Shown: piece after piece, positions 10,745 to 23,115 of the stretch
Position numbering within the stretch: position 1 is the stretch's first letter
Layout: every line of letters begins with the position of its first letter
NCBI RefSeq assembly: GCF_000717875.1
Contig: NZ_JOCT01000022.1
Coordinates: 62,001 to 126,000 of the forward strand
Reading direction: 5' to 3'
Origin: Streptomyces sp. NRRL S-455
GTDB lineage: Bacteria; Actinomycetota; Actinomycetes; Streptomycetales; Streptomycetaceae
Length of the DNA stretch: 64,000 nt
The notes under the pieces: generated by a model
What the model was told of the DNA's origin: nothing
The model's database searches: none
The model's input: only the letters and a program-made list of their open reading frames with translations
Made by a program: the position numbers and the translations under genes

Positions 10745-11046
10745 TGTCCGTCACCCGTCGGCCGGGGGTGTGCCGAGAACGTGTCACCTGCTTCTTTCGA
10801 GGTTGCCCCGGCGTTCACGCCGGGGAGGAATCGCATCCGGGTGCTGCGACGCAAAGCGTGTCGCCTATCCCGTTCAGGGCGTGGGGCGGCCGTATCCCTG
10901 TCCGATGCCTCCGTGGCTATAGGAACGCACGTGCCTGTTGTCGCTGGTCGGGGTGATGGGCACGGGATCGGGGGACGCGCGTCCGACGGTCGTACGTACG
11001 GTCCTTCTTGGGATCGGGACACCTGGTCGTTGCGGGAGGGGGCGGG

Positions 11047-12270
11047 ATGGCACACGTGGGGGCAGCCGTGGAGGTGGCCGGGCATGCCCGCTACACCTTC
11101 CGGCTACGTCTGTCGTCCGCTGCCCGCACGGCGCTGAAGGCGGAGTGGGACCGGTGCCGGTGGCTGTGGAACGAGTGTGTCGCCAAGTCCAGGGCCGTGC
11201 ACCTGCACAACAAGGCAACGGGGGAGCAGCGGACGTGCGGCCCGGCTCAGCTCGACCGGATGCTGACCGAGGCCCGGAAGACGATTCCATGGCTGCGAGA
11301 GGGCTCCTCAGTGGTCCAGCAGCAGGTCATCCGCGACTTCAGCCGCTCTCGCGCCAAGGCACACAATGACATCAGGGGACGGCTGCCTCTTCGGCGGCGG
11401 GCCGCTATGCCGAAGCGCAAGAAGAAGCGCGAGGCACTGCCGACCCTGAACTACACCCGGCGCGGGTTCCGACTGAAGGACGGCCGGTTGCACCTGGCCG
11501 GGGGCATCGTCGTGAGGGTGGTGTGGTCACGGGAACTGCCCGCTGAGCCGTCCTCGGTGCGCGTGTACCAGGACAGCCTGGGGCACTGGTACGGCTCCTT
11601 CGTCCTTCCTGCGGCCGTCGAGCCCCTGCCGGAGATCGGCCGGATGCTCGGTGTCGACTGGGGTGTGAAGCAGACCGCGACCACCACCTCCGAAGCGCAC
11701 GACCTGCCGCACCCCGAACACGGCAGGAAGGCCCTGCAGAAGCTGACCCGGTACGACCGGATGATGGCCCGTCGCCGGCCGAAGAAGGGCCGGCCGGCAT
11801 CGAAGGGCTACCGCGAGGCGAAGAAGCTGCGGGCGAAGGGGTACAAGAAGGTCGCCCGGCAGCGCCAGGACACCGGCCGCAAATGGGCCAAGAAAGTGGT
11901 CCGCGACCACGACGCCCTCGCTGTCGAGGACTTCAAGCCCCGGTTTCTCGCCAAGACCACCATGGCACGTAAGGCCGCGGACGCCGCCATCGGCGCCACC
12001 AAGGCCGCTCTGCTCGAGATGGGCCGCAAGCACGGGCGTGACGTCCGCCTGGTCCACCCCGCGCACACCACGATGGACTGCGCCAGCTGCATGACGAGAG
12101 CCAAGCATGCACTGCCGCTGGGTGAGCGCACCTACACCTGCACCGCGTGCGGGGCCGTCTCCCCACGGGACAAGAACTCCGCACGCGTGATGCTCATCCG
12201 GGCTGGTCTCAACCCGGCTGGTGCTGATGGCGCAAGACCTCCTGGAGCACTGCTCCAGGAGGCAGCCTGA
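11047..12270 (+). CDS. tnpB: TnpB-type RNA-guided nuclease of an IS605-family element
   Basis: 407 residues, ATG 11047 behind a G-rich ribosome site. The RuvC catalytic triad appears intact: Asp204 (LGVDWGV), Glu294 (AVEDFKP) and Asp375 (SPRDKNSA). A zinc finger lies between the last two (CASC ... CTACG). The N-terminal region has the usual RuvC-preceding pattern (WDRCRWLWNECVAKSR; SSVVQQQVIRDFSRSRAKAH). TnpB proteins cut DNA next to a short target-adjacent motif, guided by an omega RNA made from the element's right end; this helps the element persist. The gene's 3' end probably overlaps that RNA. It differs strongly from the second TnpB at 47169. Confidence 0.9.
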   Translation: MAHVGAAVEVAGHARYTFRLRLSSAARTALKAEWDRCRWLWNECVAKSRAVHLHNKATGEQRTCGPAQLDRMLTEARKTIPWLREGSSVVQQQVIRDFSRSRAKAHNDIRGRLPLRRRAAMPKRKKKREALPTLNYTRRGFRLKDGRLHLAGGIVVRVVWSRELPAEPSSVRVYQDSLGHWYGSFVLPAAVEPLPEIGRMLGVDWGVKQTATTTSEAHDLPHPEHGRKALQKLTRYDRMMARRRPKKGRPASKGYREAKKLRAKGYKKVARQRQDTGRKWAKKVVRDHDALAVEDFKPRFLAKTTMARKAADAAIGATKAALLEMGRKHGRDVRLVHPAHTTMDCASCMTRAKHALPLGERTYTCTACGAVSPRDKNSARVMLIRAGLNPAGADGARPPGALLQEAA

Positions 12271-12307
12271 GCCAGAAATCCCCTCCCTTAGGAAGGGGAG
12301 GATTCAA
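12190..12307 (+). ncRNA. Probable omega (right-end) RNA scaffold of the first TnpB element
   Basis: From about 12190 the DNA has a GCAAGACCTC motif shared with the second element (GTAAGACCTC near 48288), a strong hairpin (CTCCTGGAGCA/TGCTCCAGGAG, 12238-12262) and the right-end hairpin, ending at TCAA 12307. The guide would be the flank starting at 12308. Boundaries are inferred from how TnpB omega RNAs are organised. Confidence 0.45.
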
Positions 12308-13328
12308 GGGATGCCTGACGGAACCGGTCGAGGCAGCGTCCCCAGGGCCCGGTGACACCGAAGTCGAGCAGCTGGGGCAGCAGGGCGGCCGAGAAGTCGG
12401 CGCTGGACTCCAGCGGCAGCAGGGAGGGCAGGTTGTCGATGGCGATCAGGTCGAGCGGGGGCTCCGCGCGCAGCCGGCGCACGGGCACGTCCCAGTCGGT
12501 GGTGTCGTCGTACACCGGGAGGACGTTGAGGGGGGAGCCGACGTCGCACGTCACGTCGCACAGGGTGCGCAGGCGGCGGTCGGGGTCGTCGAGGTCCTGC
12601 TCGCGGAGAAAGGGCGGGACCGGGGTGGTGGCGAGCACCGCGTTGACCATCACGTCGTGCCGCAACAGGGCTTCGCGGTCCAGGTCGCGGGTCTCGGCGA
12701 GGTCCCAGCAGGCCGGGTCGGCTCCGGCTGTGGCGAAGGCCGTGCGGGCGCCACGGCCGCTGCGTCCGAGGGCGCCGATGACCAGGCCGGTGAACTCGGT
12801 GTCGCCAGCTGCCGGCTTGAGCGTCTCGTCGAGTTCGTCCTTCGTCGTGGGCACGAGCGGTGCCCTCAGCCGGCCCCGGTGCTGGAGGACGGCCAGGGCA
12901 GCGCCCAGGTAGCCGGCCCAGAACCCGAAGGCGGCGAGGCGTCGTCCGGAGTCGTCCACCAGGTACTCCAGGTCGAACAGCGCCCCGCCCCCGGCGGCGA
13001 ACCGGCGCAGCAGGTCTCCCGCTCCCGGCTGGCCCTTGTAGGCGTGGCCGAAGAAGATGTGCCGGTGGGTCAGCTCGGCCGGTTCCGGGGGCAGTTCCTT
13101 CAGGCCGAGCACGACGGTGTCGCGCGGCGCCGACACCCAGGAGCCCGCGGGGGCGACGCGGCAGCCGGCCGCCTCGTACTCCTCGACGCGGAAGACACGC
13201 TGCGGGGACTCCTCGACGGTCAGTGCCACTCCACTGCCGACGAGCCGCCGGGCGTCATCGGGGACGATCGGTGTGCGTCGCTCGGTCGTGCGGGCCTCGT
13301 GGCGCAGCCACAGATGGAGCTCGGTCAT
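12288..13328 (-). CDS. Saccharopine dehydrogenase (lysine-forming)/alanine-dehydrogenase-like protein; 3' end altered by IS insertion
   Basis: 346 residues, ATG 13328. The N-terminus matches the AlaDH/PNT and LYS1 family (LWLRHEARTTERRTPIVPDD), with FFGHAYKGQPGAGDLLRRF and LEYLVDDSGRRLAAFGFWAG typical of NAD-dependent saccharopine dehydrogenases, then an NAD-binding half (VIGALGRSGRGARTAF). The last codons (LESSPS and stop) are read from the right end of the TnpB element at 12288-12307, so the native C-terminus was replaced. The change is at the extreme end and the enzyme may still work. Streptomyces make lysine by the diaminopimelate route, so the role may be catabolic or specialised. Confidence 0.8.
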   Translation of the reverse strand: MTELHLWLRHEARTTERRTPIVPDDARRLVGSGVALTVEESPQRVFRVEEYEAAGCRVAPAGSWVSAPRDTVVLGLKELPPEPAELTHRHIFFGHAYKGQPGAGDLLRRFAAGGGALFDLEYLVDDSGRRLAAFGFWAGYLGAALAVLQHRGRLRAPLVPTTKDELDETLKPAAGDTEFTGLVIGALGRSGRGARTAFATAGADPACWDLAETRDLDREALLRHDVMVNAVLATTPVPPFLREQDLDDPDRRLRTLCDVTCDVGSPLNVLPVYDDTTDWDVPVRRLRAEPPLDLIAIDNLPSLLPLESSADFSAALLPQLLDFGVTGPWGRCLDRFRQASLESSPS

Positions 13329-13413: not shown

Positions 13414-14073
13414 CTACGAGGAGCTGACCACCGCGTCCAGGTGGGGCAGGTGGTGGTCGAGGCGCTCCCGCTTGGTCCGCAGGTACGTGATGTTGTTCTC
13501 GCACGGCGGTATCAGCAACGGTACCTGCTCGGCGACACGGATGCCGTGGCTCACCAGCGCCTCGCGCTTACGCGGGTTGTTGGACATCAGCCGGACGCTC
13601 TTCACGCCCAGGTCGTCCATGATCCGGGCGGCCACGCCGTAGTCGCGGGCGTCGACCGGCAGGCCGAGCGCGAGGTTGGCCTCGACGGTGTCCAGGCCCT
13701 CCGCCTGCAGGGCCATGGCGCGCAGCTTGGCGAGCAGGCCGATGCCACGGCCTTCATGCCCTCTGAGGTAGACGACGACACCGGCGCCCTCGGAGACGAC
13801 CGCGCGCAGGGCGGCGTCGAGCTGGTCACCGCACTCGCAGTGCTGGGAGCCGAAGGCGTCGCCGGTCAGGCACTCCGAGTGCAGGCGGATGAGGACGTCG
13901 TCGGTGCCGATCTCGCCGTAGACCAGTGCGACCTGTTCGTCACCGCGGTCGTGGTCCATGTAGCCGATCGCCTGGAATTTCCCGTACACGGTGGGCAAGG
14001 GGGCATTCACGACGCGTTCCACGCCGGTCCGCTGCGGAGCCTTCTTGCCGAGTACGCCAATTTTTTCTGTCAT
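13414..14073 (-). CDS. GTP cyclohydrolase II paralogue of the FAPy-forming type (SCO6655-like)
   Basis: 219 residues from ATG 14073; the longer frame to 14178 overlaps the divergent gene. The zinc site is intact (Cys68, Cys79, Cys81 in SECLTGDAFGSQHCECG), as are GHEGRGIGLLAKLRA and SNNPRKREAL. The residue equivalent to E. coli RibA Tyr105 is Met120 (KLRAMALQ in place of KIRAYALQ). In the Streptomyces coelicolor paralogue SCO6655 this Tyr-to-Met change is reported to stop the reaction at the formylated pyrimidine FAPy instead of the riboflavin precursor. By that reasoning this enzyme should turn GTP into FAPy ribonucleotide for a specialised pathway. It diverges, 41 bp away, from a creatininase-family gene. 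Confidence 0.88.
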   Translation of the reverse strand: MTEKIGVLGKKAPQRTGVERVVNAPLPTVYGKFQAIGYMDHDRGDEQVALVYGEIGTDDVLIRLHSECLTGDAFGSQHCECGDQLDAALRAVVSEGAGVVVYLRGHEGRGIGLLAKLRAMALQAEGLDTVEANLALGLPVDARDYGVAARIMDDLGVKSVRLMSNNPRKREALVSHGIRVAEQVPLLIPPCENNITYLRTKRERLDHHLPHLDAVVSSS

Positions 14074-14114
14074 GATTCTCGAGTTCCTAAGCAGAGACGA
14101 AAGGCCGTGTCGAT

Positions 14115-14843
14115 ATGAGTGATCTGGTGCCGGCGGACACCACGGAGGACGTACGGACGCGGGGGGCCGGTGTCTCACGGCAGGTCGCGGTGCTTCCCGT
14201 GGGGAGCTTCGAACAGCACGGCCCGTATCTTCCGTTGGCGACCGACACGCTGGTGGCCTGTGCCGTCGCGCGGGAGATAGCCGGCGCGTACCCGGTGCAC
14301 CTCCTTCCTCCGGTGACGATCTCGTGCTCGCACGAGCACTCGGCCTGGCCGGGGACCGTGAGCATCTCCTCGGTGACCCTTCATGCGGTGGTACGGGACA
14401 TTGCGGATTCGCTCCGCCGGTCCGGGGTCGACACGCTGGTGGTGGTCAACGGGCACGGCGGAAACTACGTACTGGGCAACGTGGTTCAGGAGTCCTCCGC
14501 CCGCGGCGAGCGGATGGCGCTCTTCCCTGCCCCGGAGGACTGGGAGACGGCGCTGGAGCGGGCGGGTGTGGCCACCTCGCTGCTCACCGACATGCACGCG
14601 GGGGAAATCGAGACCTCCATCCTTCTGCACGCTCATCCCGAAATGCTCCGACCCGGTTATGAGACTTCGGATTTCGTCGCTGACGACCGGCGTCATCTGC
14701 TCACCCTCGGCATGTCCGCCTATACCGATTCCGGCGTCATCGGCCGGCCTTCGCTGGGTTCGGCGGAAAAAGGGAAGGAACTCCTGGCGAGCCTGGCTGA
14801 TTCCTTCGGGGCGTATTTCTCGCTGCTGACCTCCGACGCGTAG
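14115..14843 (+). CDS. Creatininase-family amidohydrolase, possible FAPy deformylase
   Basis: 242 residues, ATG 14115. The metal-binding motifs of the family are present: LPVGSFEQHGPYLPLATDT (Glu, His, Asp ligands), NGHGGNYVL and DMHAGEIETS (His and Glu). Known members hydrolyse creatinine, the mycofactocin precursor (MftE) or, in archaea, the formamide bond of FAPy (ArfB). Because the neighbouring cyclohydrolase has the FAPy-type active site, deformylation of FAPy is the most economical guess. The gene's last 124 bp overlap the 3' end of the convergent membrane-protein gene. Confidence 0.82.
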   Translation: MSDLVPADTTEDVRTRGAGVSRQVAVLPVGSFEQHGPYLPLATDTLVACAVAREIAGAYPVHLLPPVTISCSHEHSAWPGTVSISSVTLHAVVRDIADSLRRSGVDTLVVVNGHGGNYVLGNVVQESSARGERMALFPAPEDWETALERAGVATSLLTDMHAGEIETSILLHAHPEMLRPGYETSDFVADDRRHLLTLGMSAYTDSGVIGRPSLGSAEKGKELLASLADSFGAYFSLLTSDA

Positions 14844-16048
14844 TCAGCCGCCGACGCGGGGCCGGGGCCCGGGTCCGCCGCGACGGCCCGGGCCCGGTCT
14901 CCGGCGCGCAGGCCCGCGTACCAGCGGGCGACGAGCACGACGAGGCCGGGCAGGCTCGCCACGAGGCTGAGCACCCCGTAGACGACCGCGACGGCGAGTC
15001 CCCGGCCGGCGCCCAGGCCTGCGGCGCCGAACGCCCAGGCGGTGACGCCCTCCCTCGGCCCCCAGCCTCCGACGTTCAGCGGCAGGCCCATCGCCAGCAG
15101 CGCGAGGACCGCGAGCGGTACCAGTACGGCCACCGAGGCGGCGACTCCGGCCACGCGGGCGGCGAGTACGAACATGGCGACGTAACCCGCCAGTACGACC
15201 ACGGAGCTGACCACGACTCCCGGCCCGTTGCGGCGGGACACCAGCCCTTCCCGCGCCTCGGCGAGCATGCCGCGCAGCGCCCGTCCCCGGCGGGAGGGTG
15301 CCGCCCGGTTCATGCGCAGGGCGAGGACGACAGCGAGTGCGCCGAGCGCGGCCAGGACGGCGAGCGGGGCGACGTGCCGGGCCTCGGCGAGCACCGGGGA
15401 CGGCATGGTCAGCAGGACCACGGCACCCACCGCGAACAACGCGATCTGCCCGGCGGCCCGTTCGAGCACGACGGCCTTCACGCCCCGCCGCACATCCCCC
15501 TCGCTCTGTCCGTGCCGCACCGCCCGGTGCACGTCGCCGAGGATGCCGCCGGGCAGGGCCGCGTTGAGGAACAGCGCCCTGTAGTAGTCGGCGACGGCCG
15601 GCCCGAACGGCAGCCGGATCCTCAGGCCCCGGGCCACGAGCGCCCAACGCCACGCGCTGAACACGGTGGTGACGAGCCCGAGCCCGAGGGCCAGCAGCAA
15701 CGTCTGCGCGTCGATCCGCCGCAGCCCGTCCAGGAGGACTCCGGTACCGAGCCGCCACATCAGCACGCCGAGGATGACGATTCCGGCGAAGGTGCCGAGG
15801 TGTGTGCGGACTCGGGGTGAGCCGAGCCGGGCGAGGGCGCCGCGGACGCGGCGACGGGGCGACGGGGCGGTGACGGACAGGGCTTCGAAGCCGGTTGCGT
15901 CCGTACCGCCGGTGCCGGTCCCGAGGGACGGGCACCGGCCACTGCCGGCCTCCGGGAACCACTCCGCGTCGGCGGGGATCAGCCGGTCACGCACCCCCGC
16001 CGCCGCGCCTCCCGGCACCGTCTTCGTCCCCGTCGCCTGAGGGCTCAT
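14720..16048 (-). CDS. Lysylphosphatidylglycerol-synthase-type integral membrane protein (flippase-like)
   Basis: 442 residues; ATG 16048 overlaps the stop of the methyltransferase gene (ATGA). After a loop of about 85 residues come about seven to eight membrane segments of the LPG_synthase_TM/UPF0104 family (TFAGIVILGVLMWRLGTGVL; FSAWRWALVARGL; LNAALPGGILGDVHRAVRHG; PLNVGGWGPREGVTAWAFGA). The motifs with PGG-GD and NVGGWGPREG are family hallmarks. Members flip or modify lipids and often accompany glycosyltransferases. Here it may move the cluster's product, or a lipid-linked form of it, across the membrane. The C-terminal tail of about 40 residues runs antisense to the creatininase gene. Confidence 0.8.
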   Translation of the reverse strand: MSPQATGTKTVPGGAAAGVRDRLIPADAEWFPEAGSGRCPSLGTGTGGTDATGFEALSVTAPSPRRRVRGALARLGSPRVRTHLGTFAGIVILGVLMWRLGTGVLLDGLRRIDAQTLLLALGLGLVTTVFSAWRWALVARGLRIRLPFGPAVADYYRALFLNAALPGGILGDVHRAVRHGQSEGDVRRGVKAVVLERAAGQIALFAVGAVVLLTMPSPVLAEARHVAPLAVLAALGALAVVLALRMNRAAPSRRGRALRGMLAEAREGLVSRRNGPGVVVSSVVVLAGYVAMFVLAARVAGVAASVAVLVPLAVLALLAMGLPLNVGGWGPREGVTAWAFGAAGLGAGRGLAVAVVYGVLSLVASLPGLVVLVARWYAGLRAGDRARAVAADPGPGPASAADYASEVSSEKYAPKESARLARSSFPFSAEPSEGRPMTPESV

Positions 16049-17033
16049 GACGCTCCGCCCGCCGGGCGGCACAGGGCCAGGAGGTCGGTGTGGTGGACCG
16101 TGACCCGCAACTCGCCGGCCGCGCAGGCGGACAGGCGTTCGGCCAGGTACGCGTCGGCCTCGGCACGCAGCTCGGGGCGTTGTTCGACCGCGGCGCCGAC
16201 CCAGCCGCGCAGCCACTGCTCCGTGAGCGCCGCCTGGTCGGGTCCGAGCCGCCAGGGGCTCGGATGCAGCCGTACCGTCGCGCCGTTCTCGGAGAACGCC
16301 TCGGCCGCCGCCGTGACCGCGTCGGGGCCGAGCAGTCCGTCGCGGCGCTGGTGCTCGTTGAACGCCTGGCCGATCTCCGCGTCCAGGGGATGAGCGGGGG
16401 TCAGTTCCACGCGTCCGGCGACGGAGAGCGTCAGCAGCGCGGGGCAGCCGGCTCCGGCACAGGCCGCGGCGAGGGTGTTGATCTCCTCGCGGGTGAGCAC
16501 GTCCAGCAGGGCGGACGCCGTCACCAGGGACGCGCCCTGCAGGGCGTCCGGTGTGAGGCGGGCGATGTCACCGCGCCGCGTCTCCACCGTGACCCGGCTG
16601 CCGTCGGCGGCGGAGCGCGGGGAGGCGACCGCCGCGAAGTGCAGCAGGTAGGGGTCGCGGTCGTGCAGGATCCAGTGCTGGGCACCGTCCAGGCAGGGTG
16701 CGAGCCAGCGGCCCATCGAGCCGGTGCCGCAGCCCAGGTCGTGGATGACGACACCGCCCGACTTGCCCGGCAGGTTGGCCAGCCGGATACGCAGCGGGTC
16801 GAGCAGGTCGTGCGCCCGCGCGGCGGCGTCGGCCGGCTCCCGCAGCTGAAGCCACTCGGGTGCGTAACGGGGCGGATCGTCGGGCCCCGCCTCGCGCAGC
16901 TTCACGGTGGGCCGCGAGCCGGGCTTGGCGCTGGGGCCGGCGCCCGGAATGACACCGTCCATCGACTCGGCAGCCTCCCACGGCCCGGGCTGGGCCGGAA
17001 TCATCCCGCTCTGCTGGGTCGTCGCCGGGTTCG

Positions 17034-17037
<4 letters not shown>
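16045..17037 (-). CDS. SAM-dependent class I methyltransferase
   Basis: 330 residues; ATG 17037 overlaps the glycosyltransferase stop. The Rossmann SAM site is clear: VVIHDLGCGTGSMGRWLAPC (motif I), HWILHDRDPYLLHFA (acidic motif II), ARLTPDALQGASLVTASALLD (post-motif region). An N-terminal section of about 90 residues is Pro/Gly-rich and probably flexible. It lies in the middle of a tightly overlapping four-gene operon with PTPS-like, glycosyltransferase and flippase-like genes, so it probably methylates an intermediate of the FAPy-derived product or its sugar. The acceptor atom cannot be read. Confidence 0.82.
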
Positions 17038-18721
<1,684 letters not shown>

Positions 18722-18829
18722 TCAGCCTCGGGTACGTCTTTTCTCAGGTCAGGCGCTCTTGTCGGAGACGATCTCGTACCCGATGGAACGATTCGTCCGC
18801 CCATGCGCCAATCGCTCTCGTCGTACGCG

Positions 18830-19810
18830 TCAGGTGTTCTCGTCGTACCGGACGCGGTGGCAGAGCGCCGGGATCTCGCCGGAGGCCAGTTTCGGCAGCA
18901 CGTCCGGCAGGTCCCGGAAGGCGGACTCGCCGGTGACGAGGGCGTCGAGCGCCGGGTCGGCGAGCAGGTCGAGAGCGACGGCGAGCCGGTCGGCGTAGGT
19001 GCGGTTCGGGCGGACCGGGGAGACGGTGCCGACCTGACTGGAACGGATGACGAGCCGCCGGGAGTGGAAGGCCTCGCCGAGCGGCAGGCTCACCTTCCGG
19101 TCGCCGTACCAGCTCAGTTCGATGACGGTCCCCTCGGCGGTGAGCAGTTCCAGGGACCTGGCGAGGCCCTGCTCCGTGGCGCTGGCGTGGACGACCAGAT
19201 CGCGGTCGCCGAGAGCGTCCTCGGGTGAGGCGAAACCGACGCCGAGCGCCTCGGCGACCTTGGCGCGGGACGGATCGGCGTCCACCAGCTGGACGCGGAC
19301 GCCGGGGAACCGGGCGAGCAGGGCGGCCACCGAGCAGCCGACCATGCCGCCGCCGACCACGGCGATCCGGTCGCCGACCAGAGGCGCGGCGTCCCACAGG
19401 GCGTTGACCGCGGTCTCCACCGTCCCGGCGAGGACGGCCCGTTCGGCGGGCACCGAGTCCGGTACGGGCGTCACGGCGCTCGCGGGGACGACGTACCGCG
19501 TCTGGTGCGGGTAGAGGCAGAACACCGTGCGGCCGGCGAGCGATTCGGGCCCCTCCTCCACCACGCCGACGTTGAGGTAGCCGTACTTCACCGGGCCGGG
19601 GAAGTCGCCCTCCTGGAAGGGCGCGCGCATCGCCGTGTGCTGGCTGACGGGCACACCGCCGCGGAAGACGAGCGTCTCCGTGCCGCGGCTCACGCCCGAG
19701 AACAGCGTGCGGACCAGCACCTCGCCCTCGCCGGGCTCCGGCAGGGCGACGTCCCGGATCGCACCGTGCCCCGGCGAGTCGATCCAAAACGCACGTCCGG
19801 TGTGCTTCAT
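18830..19810 (-). CDS. Zinc-type alcohol dehydrogenase-like (MDR) oxidoreductase
   Basis: 326 residues; ATG 19810 behind GGAGGA. It is a medium-chain dehydrogenase: TLFSGVSRGTETLVFRGG near the active site, an NAD(P) loop IAVVGGGMVGCSVAALLARF and VQLVDADPSRAKVAEALG, where Asp after strand 2 suggests NAD. The usual structural-zinc Cys cluster and the catalytic Cys are absent, as in the SRGTE-bearing group related to BchC-like and threonine-dehydrogenase-like proteins. It lies 195 bp upstream of the PTPS-like gene and diverges from the CDP-alcohol phosphotransferase, so it probably serves the same pathway as a redox step on a sugar or side chain. Confidence 0.8.
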   Translation of the reverse strand: MKHTGRAFWIDSPGHGAIRDVALPEPGEGEVLVRTLFSGVSRGTETLVFRGGVPVSQHTAMRAPFQEGDFPGPVKYGYLNVGVVEEGPESLAGRTVFCLYPHQTRYVVPASAVTPVPDSVPAERAVLAGTVETAVNALWDAAPLVGDRIAVVGGGMVGCSVAALLARFPGVRVQLVDADPSRAKVAEALGVGFASPEDALGDRDLVVHASATEQGLARSLELLTAEGTVIELSWYGDRKVSLPLGEAFHSRRLVIRSSQVGTVSPVRPNRTYADRLAVALDLLADPALDALVTGESAFRDLPDVLPKLASGEIPALCHRVRYDENT

Positions 19811-19918
19811 CGAAGTCCTCCTGAACGATCCGGAAGCCGCCTGCGTACCGAGGGATGCACAGGCCGCGCACAAGGTAGCGGCGTTGATCGACTCTGTCAC
19901 ACGGCCGGAGGGTGTTCG

Positions 19919-20689
19919 GTGGCCCTGAACAACACTTACGACGCGAGGCTCGTACAGCAGGAGACCGCCGTGGGGGCGGGCGTGCAGGTCCTGCTGCTCG
20001 CCCTGATCGGCACGGCGATCGGGATGGGCCCGGCGGGCTGGCTGAGCGGCCTCGCGTTCGGATTCGCCACCTGGGCGGTGCTCTCCCGTGCCCTGCACCG
20101 CTCCGGGTCGCGCAGCTTCGGCGCGGCGAACCGGGTCACCCTCGGCCGGGCCACCCTCGTCGGCGGGGTCACCGCGCTGGTCGCGGACTCCTTCCAGAGC
20201 TCGCCGCCCGTGTCGTTGTTCGTCGGTCTGACGGCTGTGGCCCTGATCCTCGACGGCGTGGACGGCAAGGTGGCCCGCCGCACCGGCACCTCGACCCCGC
20301 TGGGCGCGCGCTTCGACATGGAGGTCGACGCGTTCCTCATCCTGGTGCTGAGCGTGTACGTGTCGATGCAACTCGGCCCGTGGGTACTGCTGATCGGCGG
20401 CATGCGGTACGTCTTCGTCGCCGCGGCCAAGGTATGGCCCTGGCTGACCGCGGCGCTTCCGCCGAGCACCGCCCGCAAGACGGTCGCGGCGCTCCAGGGC
20501 GTGCTCCTGCTTCTGGCGGGCGCCGATCTGCTGCCGTACGCGGCCAACTTCGGTGTGGCGGCCACGGCTCTGGGCCTGCTGGTCTGGTCGTTCGGGCGTG
20601 ACGTGCTGTGGCTGTACCGGACCTCGCGGGTCACCGAGTCCGAGGAGTCCCCGGCCCCGCGTCCGGTGCCCGAACTGGTCGCGGGCTGA
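19919..20689 (+). CDS. CDP-alcohol phosphatidyltransferase family membrane enzyme
   Basis: 256 residues; GTG 19919 six nt after GGAGGG. It has the complete family motif DG-x2-AR-x8-G-x3-D-x3-D (DGKVARRTGTSTPLGARFDM followed by Glu-Val-Asp) and about six membrane segments. Such enzymes move a phospho-alcohol group between CDP and an alcohol, as in phosphatidylglycerol or phosphatidylinositol-phosphate synthesis. Divergent from the dehydrogenase gene with a 108-bp shared promoter region. In this cluster it could attach a diacylglycerol-phosphate or phospho-polyol group, giving a lipid-linked product; that is inference from context. Confidence 0.87.
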   Translation: MALNNTYDARLVQQETAVGAGVQVLLLALIGTAIGMGPAGWLSGLAFGFATWAVLSRALHRSGSRSFGAANRVTLGRATLVGGVTALVADSFQSSPPVSLFVGLTAVALILDGVDGKVARRTGTSTPLGARFDMEVDAFLILVLSVYVSMQLGPWVLLIGGMRYVFVAAAKVWPWLTAALPPSTARKTVAALQGVLLLLAGADLLPYAANFGVAATALGLLVWSFGRDVLWLYRTSRVTESEESPAPRPVPELVAG

Positions 20690-21609: not shown

Positions 21610-23115
21610 TCAGCGACGCGTCCCGGCCCCCACCAGGGTCCGCTCGTACGGGTCGAGGATGACGCCCCGGACCTTGGTGGAGACACCGGCGATGATCTGC
21701 TGGTGGGCGAGCGGCACGACCGCGTCCGTGCCGAGGATCCGGGCCTCGGCGGCCATGGCCGCACCCTGCCGCTCCCCCGTGCCGTCGGTCCCGTCGGCCT
21801 TCCTCACGGCCCGGTCGACGTTCTTGTCGCACAGCAGGGCCAGGTTGTAGCCGCCGTCGCAGGTGTAGTCACTGGCGAGGATGCCGACGGGGTCGCCGGT
21901 GTCCAGGAGGCTGTTGCGGGCGCCGATGAACGCGTCGAACTTCCCGGCCAGCGCGTCGCTCTCCAGCCGTGAGTACTCACGCACCTCCAGCTTCACCTCG
22001 AAGCCGGCCTTCTGGAGCTGCTGTTGCACCACCTGGGCGACCTCGGGGAGTTCCGGCCGGTTGTCGTAGGTGGCGAGGGTGATCCGCGCACCGCCGGGCC
22101 GAGCGGCGTCCGCGCGCCCGGCCGGCTTCACCCGCTGGCTCTCGGCCCAGGTGACGGCGGGGCCGTAGATGCCCGCGCCCGGGTCGGCGTACCCCTCGAA
22201 GACGCCCTTGACGATGGCGGAGGAGTCGACCGCCTCGCGGGCGGCGGCCCGCAGCTTCGGGTCCTTGAAGGGCCCGGAGCGGGTGTTGAGTTGCAGGCTC
22301 GTGGTGCGAGTGGTGCCGGCTTCCTTCAGGGTGGCCTTGTCGAGCGTGGCGGCCTGGGCGACGGGGATCGCCTCGGCGATGTCGACGTCACCGGTGCGCA
22401 CGGCGTTGGCGCGCGCGGTGCCGTCCTTGACGAAGCGGGCGTCGATGCCGGACGCCTGGGCGCGGCCTCCCCAGTAGTCGTCGAAGCGGTCGAGGGTGGC
22501 GGAGCCGCCGCCGCTCACCTTGGTGATCTCGAAGGGTCCGGTGGCGGTGCCGACCGGGTCGGGGTTGCCCTTGCCGTACGCCTTCGGGGAGAGGATCGCC
22601 AAGCTGGGGCTGGACAAGCGCATGGGCAGGACGGGGTCGGCCGTCCCGGTGGTGATGCGTATACGGCGGCCGCCGTCGGCCTCGGCGTCGAGGGTGACAC
22701 CGGCGAGGGCGGTAGGCGCCGGCTTCGCCTTCGTGGCACGGGTGAGCGCCTCGGCCACGGCCTGCGGGGTCACGTCCGTGCCGTCCTGGAAGGTGGCCTC
22801 GCGCAGGGTGAACTCCCAGGTGCGGTCGCCTTCCCGGCGCCAGGACCGGGCGAGCGCGGGGGTCGCGCCGCCGTTGGCGTCCAGGGCGGTCAGCCCCTCG
22901 GTGACGCCGAGCCGGCTGAGCAGCGTGGCGTCGGCTCCGTACGGCGAGAAGTTCTCGGCGGGCGGGAACGCGAGGGCGACGCGCAGGCGGGATCCCGACT
23001 GCCCGCCGTCCGGCGACGACTCCCCACCCGGGGAGGCGAAGCAGCCGGCCAGACCCGGGAGGAGGACGAGGGCGGCGAGGAACCGGACGGGACTCTTGAT
23101 GCTCTTGACACGCAC
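21610..23115 (-). CDS. ABC transporter solute-binding lipoprotein, family 5 (peptide/nickel type)
   Basis: About 501 residues if GTG 23115 is the start; the frame opens at TTG 23145 and the true start is uncertain because no good ribosome site is seen. A lipoprotein signal is clear (basic start, FLAALVLLPGLAGC). The mature protein follows the DppA/NikA/OppA group: VTEGLTALDANGGATPALAR, WEFTLREATFQDGTDVTPQA, GPFEITKVSGGGSATLDRF, and a late WAESQ/PVGILASDYTCDGG region. No permease or ATPase genes adjoin it, so it may serve a transporter encoded elsewhere. Its divergent CooC-like neighbour hints at nickel or metallophore uptake, but this is only suggestive. Confidence 0.82.
   Translation of the reverse strand: MRVKSIKSPVRFLAALVLLPGLAGCFASPGGESSPDGGQSGSRLRVALAFPPAENFSPYGADATLLSRLGVTEGLTALDANGGATPALARSWRREGDRTWEFTLREATFQDGTDVTPQAVAEALTRATKAKPAPTALAGVTLDAEADGGRRIRITTGTADPVLPMRLSSPSLAILSPKAYGKGNPDPVGTATGPFEITKVSGGGSATLDRFDDYWGGRAQASGIDARFVKDGTARANAVRTGDVDIAEAIPVAQAATLDKATLKEAGTTRTTSLQLNTRSGPFKDPKLRAAAREAVDSSAIVKGVFEGYADPGAGIYGPAVTWAESQRVKPAGRADAARPGGARITLATYDNRPELPEVAQVVQQQLQKAGFEVKLEVREYSRLESDALAGKFDAFIGARNSLLDTGDPVGILASDYTCDGGYNLALLCDKNVDRAVRKADGTDGTGERQGAAMAAEARILGTDAVVPLAHQQIIAGVSTKVRGVILDPYERTLVGAGTRR

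What the first reader, a model, noticed from the sequence alone, without database searches (positions are those of the whole stretch)
13414..20689. A cluster that seems to divert GTP into a new pyrimidine/pterin-derived, possibly lipid-linked metabolite
Seen: a GTP cyclohydrolase II with intact zinc site but Met120 at the position of E. coli Tyr105; a divergent creatininase-family gene; an operon of PTPS-like, glycosyltransferase, methyltransferase and flippase-like genes joined by overlapping codons; then a dehydrogenase and a divergent CDP-alcohol phosphotransferase. Known: the Streptomyces coelicolor paralogue SCO6655 with the same Met is reported to make FAPy and not the riboflavin precursor; archaeal ArfB, of the creatininase family, deformylates FAPy. 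Inference: GTP gives FAPy, then a deaminated/deformylated pyrimidine, which is glycosylated, methylated and attached to a phosphoalcohol or lipid and moved across the membrane. I know of no described product for this combination.
Basis: partly seen in the sequence, partly recalled or inferred. Interest (0 to 1): 0.8.

Follow-up and report, generated by a model that had tools for sequence, protein, structure and literature searches.

The report
Conserved GTP-to-modified-pyrimidine gene cluster
This Streptomyces gene cluster appears to open the ring of GTP in two separate steps and feed the resulting pyrimidine into an undescribed sugar-bearing, methylated and probably membrane-linked metabolite; the same core genes sit together in many other bacteria and some salt-loving archaea.

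Summary
Window 13414-20689 holds a GTP cyclohydrolase II (GCHII) with its zinc cysteines and Met120 where E. coli has Tyr105, a creatininase-family gene, a PTPS-GT-methyltransferase-flippase run joined by 4-base overlaps, a zinc-free dehydrogenase and a CDP-alcohol phosphotransferase. New comparative evidence supports the first two steps: in the genome sample, 22 of 22 clusters whose GCHII lacks Tyr105 have a creatininase gene, while 14 of 14 with Tyr have none in the stretch; three proteobacterial clusters agree. One haloarchaeal cluster uses an unrelated FAPy-type cyclohydrolase (GCH III). Many relatives carry a RibD_C reductase, twice fused to GCHII. The common entry metabolite is probably 2,5-diamino-6-ribosylamino-pyrimidinone phosphate. 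Deamination is not supported. Later steps (pterin ring closure, glycosylation, methylation, lipid linkage) are inferred; no product was identified. A FAPy-deformylating creatininase (BrbF), SCO6655 and the SCO6650 structure are already known; the pathway as a whole I did not find described.

The parts
13414..14073 (-). GTP cyclohydrolase II, 219 aa, zinc Cys68/79/81 kept, Met120 at the E. coli Tyr105 position (SCO6655 type)
   Evidence: PF00925 221 bits; alignment to 2bz0; Cys and residue-120 table
14115..14843 (+). creatininase-family protein, 242 aa, proposed FAPy deformylase; motifs EQHG, D, NGHGGN and HAGxxET present
   Evidence: PF02633 209.5 bits; below the cut-off of the four NCBIfam equivalogs it matches, e.g. 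MftE 131.1 of 172 and ArfB 36.6 of 180; motifs
14720..16048 (-). flippase-like membrane protein (LPG_synthase_TM), 442 aa
   Evidence: PF03706 112 bits
16045..17037 (-). class I SAM methyltransferase, 330 aa; ATGA overlap with the flippase gene
   Evidence: PF13649 27 bits, at cut-off; model with methyltransferase fold, first 58 residues of low confidence
17034..18239 (-). family 4 glycosyltransferase, 401 aa; nearest solved sequences 3c4q/3c48 (recalled as MshA)
   Evidence: PF00534 101.6 bits
18236..18634 (-). PTPS-like protein, 132 aa, orthologue of SCO6650 (3d7j); catalytic Cys and one zinc His lost, pterin-holding Glu kept
   Evidence: PF01242 81.6 bits; 8 differences in 132 residues to 3d7j; alignment
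18830..19810 (-). medium-chain dehydrogenase, 326 aa, with an SxGTE motif where zinc-dependent members have (recalled) the catalytic Cys
   Evidence: BchC model 51.9 bits, below its cut-off 291; alignment of 64; predicted fold
19919..20689 (+). CDP-alcohol phosphotransferase with full D-x2-DG-x2-AR-x8-G-x3-D-x3-D motif
   Evidence: PF01066 48.5 bits (scanned from 19925); motif here, and in slightly relaxed form in 116 of 117 loci; start codon
19811..19918 (.). intergenic region between the divergent dehydrogenase and CDP-alcohol genes, likely promoter region
   Evidence: gene layout
14074..14114 (.). 41-base intergenic region between the divergent GCHII and creatininase genes
   Evidence: gene layout

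Best explanation
A biosynthetic pathway that starts with a two-enzyme replacement of ordinary GCHII. Step 1 (well supported by comparison): the Tyr-less GCHII opens GTP to FAPy (2-amino-5-formylamino-6-ribosylamino-4(3H)-pyrimidinone 5'-phosphate). Step 2 (well supported by comparison): the creatininase-family protein removes the formyl group, giving 2,5-diamino-6-ribosylamino-4(3H)-pyrimidinone 5'-phosphate (DARoPP), the product an ordinary GCHII makes alone. Step 3 (supported in relatives, in trans here): a RibD_C/ArfC-type reductase turns the ribosyl into a ribityl chain; the window cluster has none, but the genome holds a stand-alone Tyr-GCHII + RibD_C pair on contig C41. Step 4 (inferred): the zinc-free polyol-type dehydrogenase oxidises the ribityl 2'-OH, giving the same 2'-keto intermediate that GTP cyclohydrolase I makes by Amadori rearrangement; the PTPS-like protein binds the aminopyrimidinone and helps it close to a dihydroneopterin-type phosphate. 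Step 5 (inferred): the GT4 and the methyltransferase make a methylated glycoside. Step 6 (inferred, absent in some lineages): the CDP-alcohol phosphotransferase couples it to a lipid or phosphoalcohol, and the flippase-like protein moves it across the membrane.
For: Tyr105 loss and creatininase go together: 22 of 22 non-Tyr clusters in the genome sample have a creatininase (21; L190's lies about 10 kb away on the same contig) and 14 of 14 Tyr clusters have none in the stretch (L061, a riboflavin operon, dropped); 74 named Streptomyces loci all have Met plus creatininase; Agrobacterium, Peteryoungia and Palleronia clusters have Tyr and no creatininase match. Non-Tyr residues vary (M 9, L 7, H 4, Q 2), as if the Tyr were no longer needed. 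About three GCHII lineages serve the same core (tree), and in Haloarcula sp. GH36 an unrelated GCH_III (272.6 bits) sits beside CDP-alcohol phosphotransferase, DH, PTPS and MT; two closely related Haloarcula plasmids have a creatininase-family gene near the core. RibD_C reductases lie in 33 of 60 loci (L061 included) and are fused to GCHII in L197 and L199. Creatininase-family BrbF deformylates FAPy in Sinorhizobium (PMC9478397, outline with abstract, and passages). Pterin side: PTPS fold with the Glu kept; FolB lies 2-3 kb from the PTPS gene in 17 of 17 Rubrobacteraceae genomes that have it.
Against: No assay or metabolite. The non-Tyr GCHIIs form one clade, so the pairing rests on few independent events, and whole genomes of the Tyr clusters were not searched for creatininase. 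No GCHII was found in 23 of the 60 stretches, among them all nine Rubrobacteraceae stretches fetched. The GH36 stretch with GCH III has no creatininase match. RibD_C is absent from the window cluster and from 17 of the 22 non-Tyr clusters. Every one of 23 relatives' genomes tested has GTP cyclohydrolase I, so a second route to an ordinary pterin looks wasteful. PTPS lost its catalytic Cys and one zinc ligand; my ring-closure role for it is speculation. FolB near the core may be mere synteny. The dehydrogenase's fold relatives (sorbitol, xylitol, threonine dehydrogenases, TarJ) are tied and do not fix its substrate.
Confidence: 0.5

Rival explanations
1. Steps 1-3 as above, but no pterin is formed: the product is a ribityl-diaminopyrimidine that is oxidised on its chain, glycosylated, methylated and attached through its 5'-phosphate to a lipid; the PTPS-like protein only binds the pyrimidine or does an isomerisation.
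For: Same entry evidence. PTPS lost its catalytic Cys, Asp/His pair and one zinc ligand. All 23 genomes tested already have GTP cyclohydrolase I. The nearest solved GT sequences are 3c4q/3c48 (recalled as MshA, which acts on inositol phosphate), and the CDP-alcohol enzyme resembles, far below cut-off, inositol-phosphate phosphotransferases.
Against: FolB 2-3 kb from the PTPS gene in all 17 Rubrobacteraceae genomes tested; the Rubrobacteraceae PTPS keeps all three zinc histidines and the three haloarchaeal PTPS aligned have Glu at the catalytic Cys position, which from recall fits the pterin-side-chain-cleaving PTPS-III type.
Confidence: 0.25
2. The PTPS-like T-fold protein itself rearranges and closes DARoPP to a dihydroneopterin phosphate (a GTP cyclohydrolase I split over three proteins); RibD_C and the dehydrogenase then act on the pterin ring and side chain, as dihydropteridine and sepiapterin reductases do in biopterin-glucoside synthesis.
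For: GTP cyclohydrolase I and PTPS share the T-fold (recalled); the gene set parallels cyanobacterial pterin glycoside synthesis, whose cyanopterin carries a methylated sugar (PMC3546692, passages). It explains why most creatininase clusters need no RibD_C nearby.
Against: Two GCHII-RibD_C fusions suggest that the reductase acts directly on the GCHII product.
Confidence: 0.13
3. GCHII and creatininase make a separate product or feed riboflavin, and only happen to sit beside a glycolipid or envelope gene cluster.
For: 23 of 60 stretches have no GCHII, most of them with the DH-PTPS-GT core.
Against: GCHII of about three lineages and a GCH III recruited to the same core; eight genes together in 74 of 80 Streptomyces loci; two other GCHII genes lie elsewhere in the genome; no deaminase domain in the window cluster.
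Confidence: 0.1

Closest known systems
Streptomyces coelicolor SCO6655 (FAPy-forming GCHII) and SCO6650 (PTPS homologue, PDB 3d7j)
   Same: Window PTPS differs from 3d7j at 8 of 132 residues; Met at the Tyr105 position. SCO6655's activity is recalled from Spoonamore 2006, which was not held; another paper only mentions evolutionary changes of GCHII activity in Streptomyces (PMC3509567, passages).
   Different: The conserved pathway, the creatininase pairing and the spread to other phyla I did not find described. The S. coelicolor neighbourhood itself was not examined.
Archaeal ArfA-ArfB-ArfC (GCH III, FAPy deformylase, RibD_C-type reductase)
   Same: Same reaction order proposed; one haloarchaeal cluster even uses a GCH III. 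Four reductases of relatives match TIGR01508 with 107.2 to 162.5 bits, below its cut-off of 186.45.
   Different: The window's first enzyme is a GCHII; its creatininase scores 36.6 bits against the ArfB cut-off of 180.
BrbF, bacterial creatininase-family FAPy formamidase (Sinorhizobium, Brucella)
   Same: Same family and proposed reaction (PMC9478397, outline with abstract, and passages).
   Different: BrbF serves riboflavin and its FAPy-forming partner was reported as yet to be discovered; here both lie side by side with PTPS, GT, MT and CDP-alcohol genes. No BrbF sequence was compared.
Cyanobacterial pterin glycoside pathway (BH4-glucoside, cyanopterin)
   Same: Glycosyltransferase acting on a pterin and a methylated sugar in cyanopterin (PMC3546692, passages).
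   Different: That pathway starts from GTP cyclohydrolase I; here the clustered cyclohydrolase is GCHII or GCH III, with CDP-alcohol phosphotransferase and flippase added.
QueD / 6-carboxytetrahydropterin synthase
   Same: Pfam PTPS family, T-fold, Glu kept.
   Different: 36.7 bits against the QueD cut-off 89.25; catalytic Cys and one zinc His lost.

Membership tests
GTP cyclohydrolase II (RibA) | PF00925 domain and three zinc cysteines | tested here: met
   221 bits; Cys 68, 79, 81
GTP cyclohydrolase II (RibA) | Tyr at E. coli position 105, linked to deformylation | tested here: not met
   Met120; the residue's role is recalled
FAPy-forming GCHII (SCO6655 type) | Met replaces Tyr105 | tested here: met
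FAPy-forming GCHII (SCO6655 type) | makes FAPy and not DARoPP from GTP | not testable with these tools
   needs an enzyme assay
Creatininase superfamily | PF02633 domain and metal-binding motifs | tested here: met
   209.5 bits; EQHG, D and NGHGGN patterns in 94 of 95 loci and HAGxxET in 90 of 95
ArfB (archaeal FAPy deformylase) | NCBIfam NF033501 equivalog cut-off 180 | tested here: not met
   36.6 bits
MftE (mycofactocin) | TIGR03964 equivalog cut-off 172 | tested here: not met
   131.1 bits
BrbF (bacterial FAPy formamidase) | orthology to SMc02977 | not tested
   no BrbF sequence was fetched
PTPS / QueD | PF01242 T-fold | tested here: met
   81.6 bits; 3d7j
PTPS / QueD | catalytic Cys and three zinc histidines | tested here: not met
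   Cys to Ala, HGH to HGA against the QueD-like rows L061 and L062; the roles are recalled
PTPS / QueD | Glu that holds the pterin ring | tested here: met
   HES motif aligned with WES of QueD-like rows; the role is recalled
CDP-alcohol phosphotransferase | D-x2-DG-x2-AR-x8-G-x3-D-x3-D motif | tested here: met
Zinc medium-chain dehydrogenase | catalytic zinc Cys | tested here: not met
   SxGTE motif in its place in the window; Ser, Thr and Glu in 64 of 64 aligned rows; the Cys position is recalled
Riboflavin operon | RibD deaminase domain, lumazine or riboflavin synthase in the cluster | tested here: not met
   absent among the ten neighbouring genes scanned
GTP cyclohydrolase I-independent folate route | host lacks FolE | tested here: not met
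   FolE (PF01227) in 23 of 23 relatives' genomes; the window's own genome was not in that search
Arf-type pathway | RibD_C reductase encoded in the window cluster | tested here: not met
   eight RibD_C matches in the genome, none on the window's contig; in trans candidate on C41

The most novel reading that the evidence does not exclude
A previously undescribed class of membrane-linked, methylated pterin (or ribityl-pyrimidine) glycosides, made from GTP by a route independent of GTP cyclohydrolase I, whose core (dehydrogenase, PTPS-like, glycosyltransferase, methyltransferase, usually CDP-alcohol phosphotransferase) spread across Actinomycetota, Pseudomonadota and haloarchaea while the entry enzyme was exchanged several times (about three GCHII lineages and a GCH III).
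Probability: 0.3. Interest if true: 0.9.

Novelty: new variant of a known kind. Interest (0 to 1): 0.72.

Why it matters
If right, it gives the FAPy-making GCHII paralogue of Streptomyces and the orphan structure 3d7j a pathway, shows how a one-residue change that breaks an enzyme's second half-reaction is compensated by a neighbouring gene, and points to an unknown metabolite shared by bacteria and archaea. The FAPy and deformylase steps can be tested with two purified proteins, and the product by gene deletion in laboratory Streptomyces.

Tried and rejected
Folate replacement: I thought the core might replace GTP cyclohydrolase I in Rubrobacteraceae, since FolB lies near it; rejected, because FolE is present in 23 of 23 genomes. 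L061 and L062: riboflavin or QueD-like loci with PTPS alone; L061, the one with a GCHII, was dropped from the Tyr/creatininase count. L190 first looked like an exception (Leu, no creatininase); a genome search found the gene about 10 kb away. I did not search the whole genomes of the Tyr clusters for creatininase, so 'none' there means none in the stretch. Three other genomes of the same family (G566, G672, G506) have the core but gave no creatininase hit, and no GCHII lies in their stretches; I did not search their whole genomes for GCHII. Orphan PTPS copies without the core: L066, L115 and L215. Most of the 54 of 296 phylum-wide PTPS hits are weak and were not all looked at. Structure searches of DH and MT returned whole superfamilies and did not fix a substrate; the DH model has low-confidence stretches at 44-64 and 236-267. 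The second half of the CDP-alcohol fusion in L173 looked sulfatase-like by eye but has no Pfam hit, so I make no claim on it; the annotated sulfatase of L206 had no Pfam hit either. A Fisher test on the pairing gave p of 2.6e-10 and, with the three proteobacterial rows, 2.0e-11, but the rows are related by descent and the value is not a probability. Paper searches that found no description of the product: all in an open-licence library only; PMC13259868 (pterin signalling review, passages) does not mention Streptomyces, PTPS or lipids.


Full report
What is there. The eight genes of the finding were confirmed by domain search and re-bounded. Order on the window: GCHII (-), creatininase family (+), flippase-like (-), methyltransferase (-), GT4 (-), PTPS-like (-), dehydrogenase (-), CDP-alcohol phosphotransferase (+). 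The PTPS/GT, GT/MT and MT/flippase junctions overlap by four bases (GTGA, ATGA, ATGA). The genome (8.2 Mb, 120 contigs) has three GCHII genes; the two others carry Tyr where this one carries Met120. It has a single PTPS-family gene, this one, and eight RibD_C matches, none on the window's contig.

Known parts. The PTPS-like protein is the orthologue of SCO6650, whose structure is PDB 3d7j (271.8 bits, 8 differences in the printed 132-residue alignment). From recall, that structure was reported to lack zinc and the catalytic triad; I did not read the paper. SCO6655, from recall, makes FAPy because of Met120; the paper (PMC3227873) was not held, and PMC3509567 only mentions evolutionary changes of GCHII activity in Streptomyces (passages).

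Conservation in Streptomyces. The PTPS gene occurs in 29 of 81 genomes of the genus, the window's own included. Of 80 named Streptomyces loci, 74 match all eight genes, or 72 if the best piece must cover 40% of each query; of the other six, five are short contigs and one is an orphan PTPS. The AlaDH-N gene at 12288-13328 is not part of the constant block.

Conservation beyond. A class-wide sample, searched with the PTPS of L051, gave 63 of 393 genomes and 23 of 122 genera. I fetched 40 stretches from 39 of these genomes, in addition to 20 earlier ones. Dehydrogenase, PTPS and GT4 lie together in 56 of the 60; the four without are L061 and L062 (QueD or riboflavin loci), L066 (orphan) and L070 (contig end). 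In the plasmid collection the same core appears in Methylosinus, Thiodictyon, Agrobacterium, Peteryoungia, Neorhizobium, Palleronia, another Rhodobacteraceae, Microbacterium and Arthrobacter, and in the haloarchaea Haloarcula, Halobellus, Halomicrococcus and Natronorubrum. The window's dehydrogenase matches 15 of the 16 plasmid loci I fetched (all but the orphan L215), and its methyltransferase matches L204-L208, L212, L213 and L216 with 33-39% identity. GT4 is missing from the adjacent genes in some (for example L210, L216). The haloarchaeal PTPS hits are weak alone (25.8-32.7% identity) but lie beside the same dehydrogenase.

The Tyr/creatininase pairing. I extracted GCHII from all 60 stretches; 37 had one, and all 37 keep the three zinc cysteines. 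One (L061) is a riboflavin operon and was dropped. Of 36 left, 14 have Tyr, no creatininase in the stretch, and a RibD_C gene; 22 have Met (9), Leu (7), His (4) or Gln (2), and 21 of these have a creatininase in the stretch. The last (L190, Leu) has it about 10 kb off on the same contig. Five of the 22 also keep RibD_C, so creatininase does not replace the reductase; it tracks the loss of Tyr. The 74 named Streptomyces loci with a GCHII all have Met and creatininase. Three proteobacterial clusters with an annotated RibA have Tyr and no creatininase match. The whole genomes of the Tyr clusters were not searched for creatininase. The tree puts all non-Tyr sequences in one clade (support 98/89), 12 Tyr+RibD_C sequences in another beside the genome's own C41 paralogue, and the two fusions L197 and L199 outside both, on long branches whose place is unsure. 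So the pairing is strict but rests on one loss of Tyr followed by drift among four residues; the recruitment of different GCHII lineages, and of a GCH III in Haloarcula sp. GH36 (272.6 bits), is the more independent evidence. That GH36 stretch has no creatininase match.

Precedent. BrbF of Sinorhizobium and Brucella is a creatininase-family enzyme that deformylates FAPy for riboflavin, with the FAPy-forming enzyme there said to be yet undiscovered (PMC9478397, outline with abstract, and passages). That makes a deformylase role for the window gene chemically plausible. By NCBIfam it passes the cut-off of neither ArfB, MftE, IolN nor creatininase. Two closely related Haloarcula plasmids also have a creatininase-family gene near the core (Pfam 229.9 bits for the one scanned; 33% identical to the window's).

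Next steps of the pathway. RibD_C genes in 33 of 60 stretches (L061 included) have no deaminase domain in the five proteins scanned, two of which are fused to GCHII; against NCBIfam, four resemble the archaeal diaminopyrimidine reductase below its cut-off (107.2 to 162.5 of 186.45). The window genome lacks this gene in the cluster, but on contig C41 it has a Tyr-GCHII and a RibD_C gene close together, the latter 56% identical to the reductase of L051. The dehydrogenase has SxGTE where zinc-dependent relatives have, from recall, the catalytic Cys; Ser, Thr and Glu are kept in 64 of 64 rows from three phyla. Its model (mean pLDDT 76.6, with weak stretches) is a medium-chain dehydrogenase with sorbitol, xylitol and idonate dehydrogenases and TarJ among tied neighbours. 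The PTPS keeps the Glu but lost Cys and one zinc His; Rubrobacteraceae copies keep all three zinc histidines with Ala for Cys, and three haloarchaeal ones have Glu at that place. FolB lies 2-3 kb from the PTPS gene in 17 of 17 Rubrobacteraceae genomes (all picked because they have the PTPS gene) and is the only copy in 16, which hints at pterin chemistry, though FolE is present in all 23 genomes tested. From this I propose that C1' reduction followed by C2' oxidation yields the GTP cyclohydrolase I intermediate and a dihydroneopterin-type phosphate, which is glycosylated and methylated. This part is inference.

Verdict. The gene set is real, widely conserved and functionally coherent; its first two steps are well supported by comparison, the rest is a testable proposal. 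The enzyme families are known, the combination and product I did not find in print (open-licence library only).

Noticed in passing
window 11008-12270 (+): IS605 OrfB / TnpB-like protein (OrfB_IS605 50.5 bits, Cas12f1-like TNB 37 bits) close to the cluster's left end.
   Followed up: partly
window 12288-13328 (-): Protein with only an AlaDH/PNT N-terminal domain, next to GCHII here but not constant among relatives.
   Followed up: partly
window 22230-22310 (+): ARAGORN calls a tRNA-Ser inside an oligopeptide-binding-protein gene on the other strand (SBP_bac_5); likely a false call.
   Followed up: no
L221 5034-7571 (own genome C41): Stand-alone Tyr-type GCHII and RibD_C reductase genes close together, relatives of the pair found inside other lineages' clusters.
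   Followed up: partly
L197 11394-12749 (-); L199 13263-15194 (-): GCHII fused to a RibD_C reductase.
   Followed up: yes
L173 1074-3428 (-): CDP-alcohol phosphotransferase domain followed in the same frame by a long stretch with no Pfam match.
   Followed up: partly
L206, L207: A cytochrome b gene (b561 by Pfam in L206) and an annotated sulfatase accompany the Rhizobiaceae clusters.
   Followed up: no
L066, L115, L215: Orphan copies of the PTPS-like gene without the rest of the cluster in Streptomyces.
   Followed up: no
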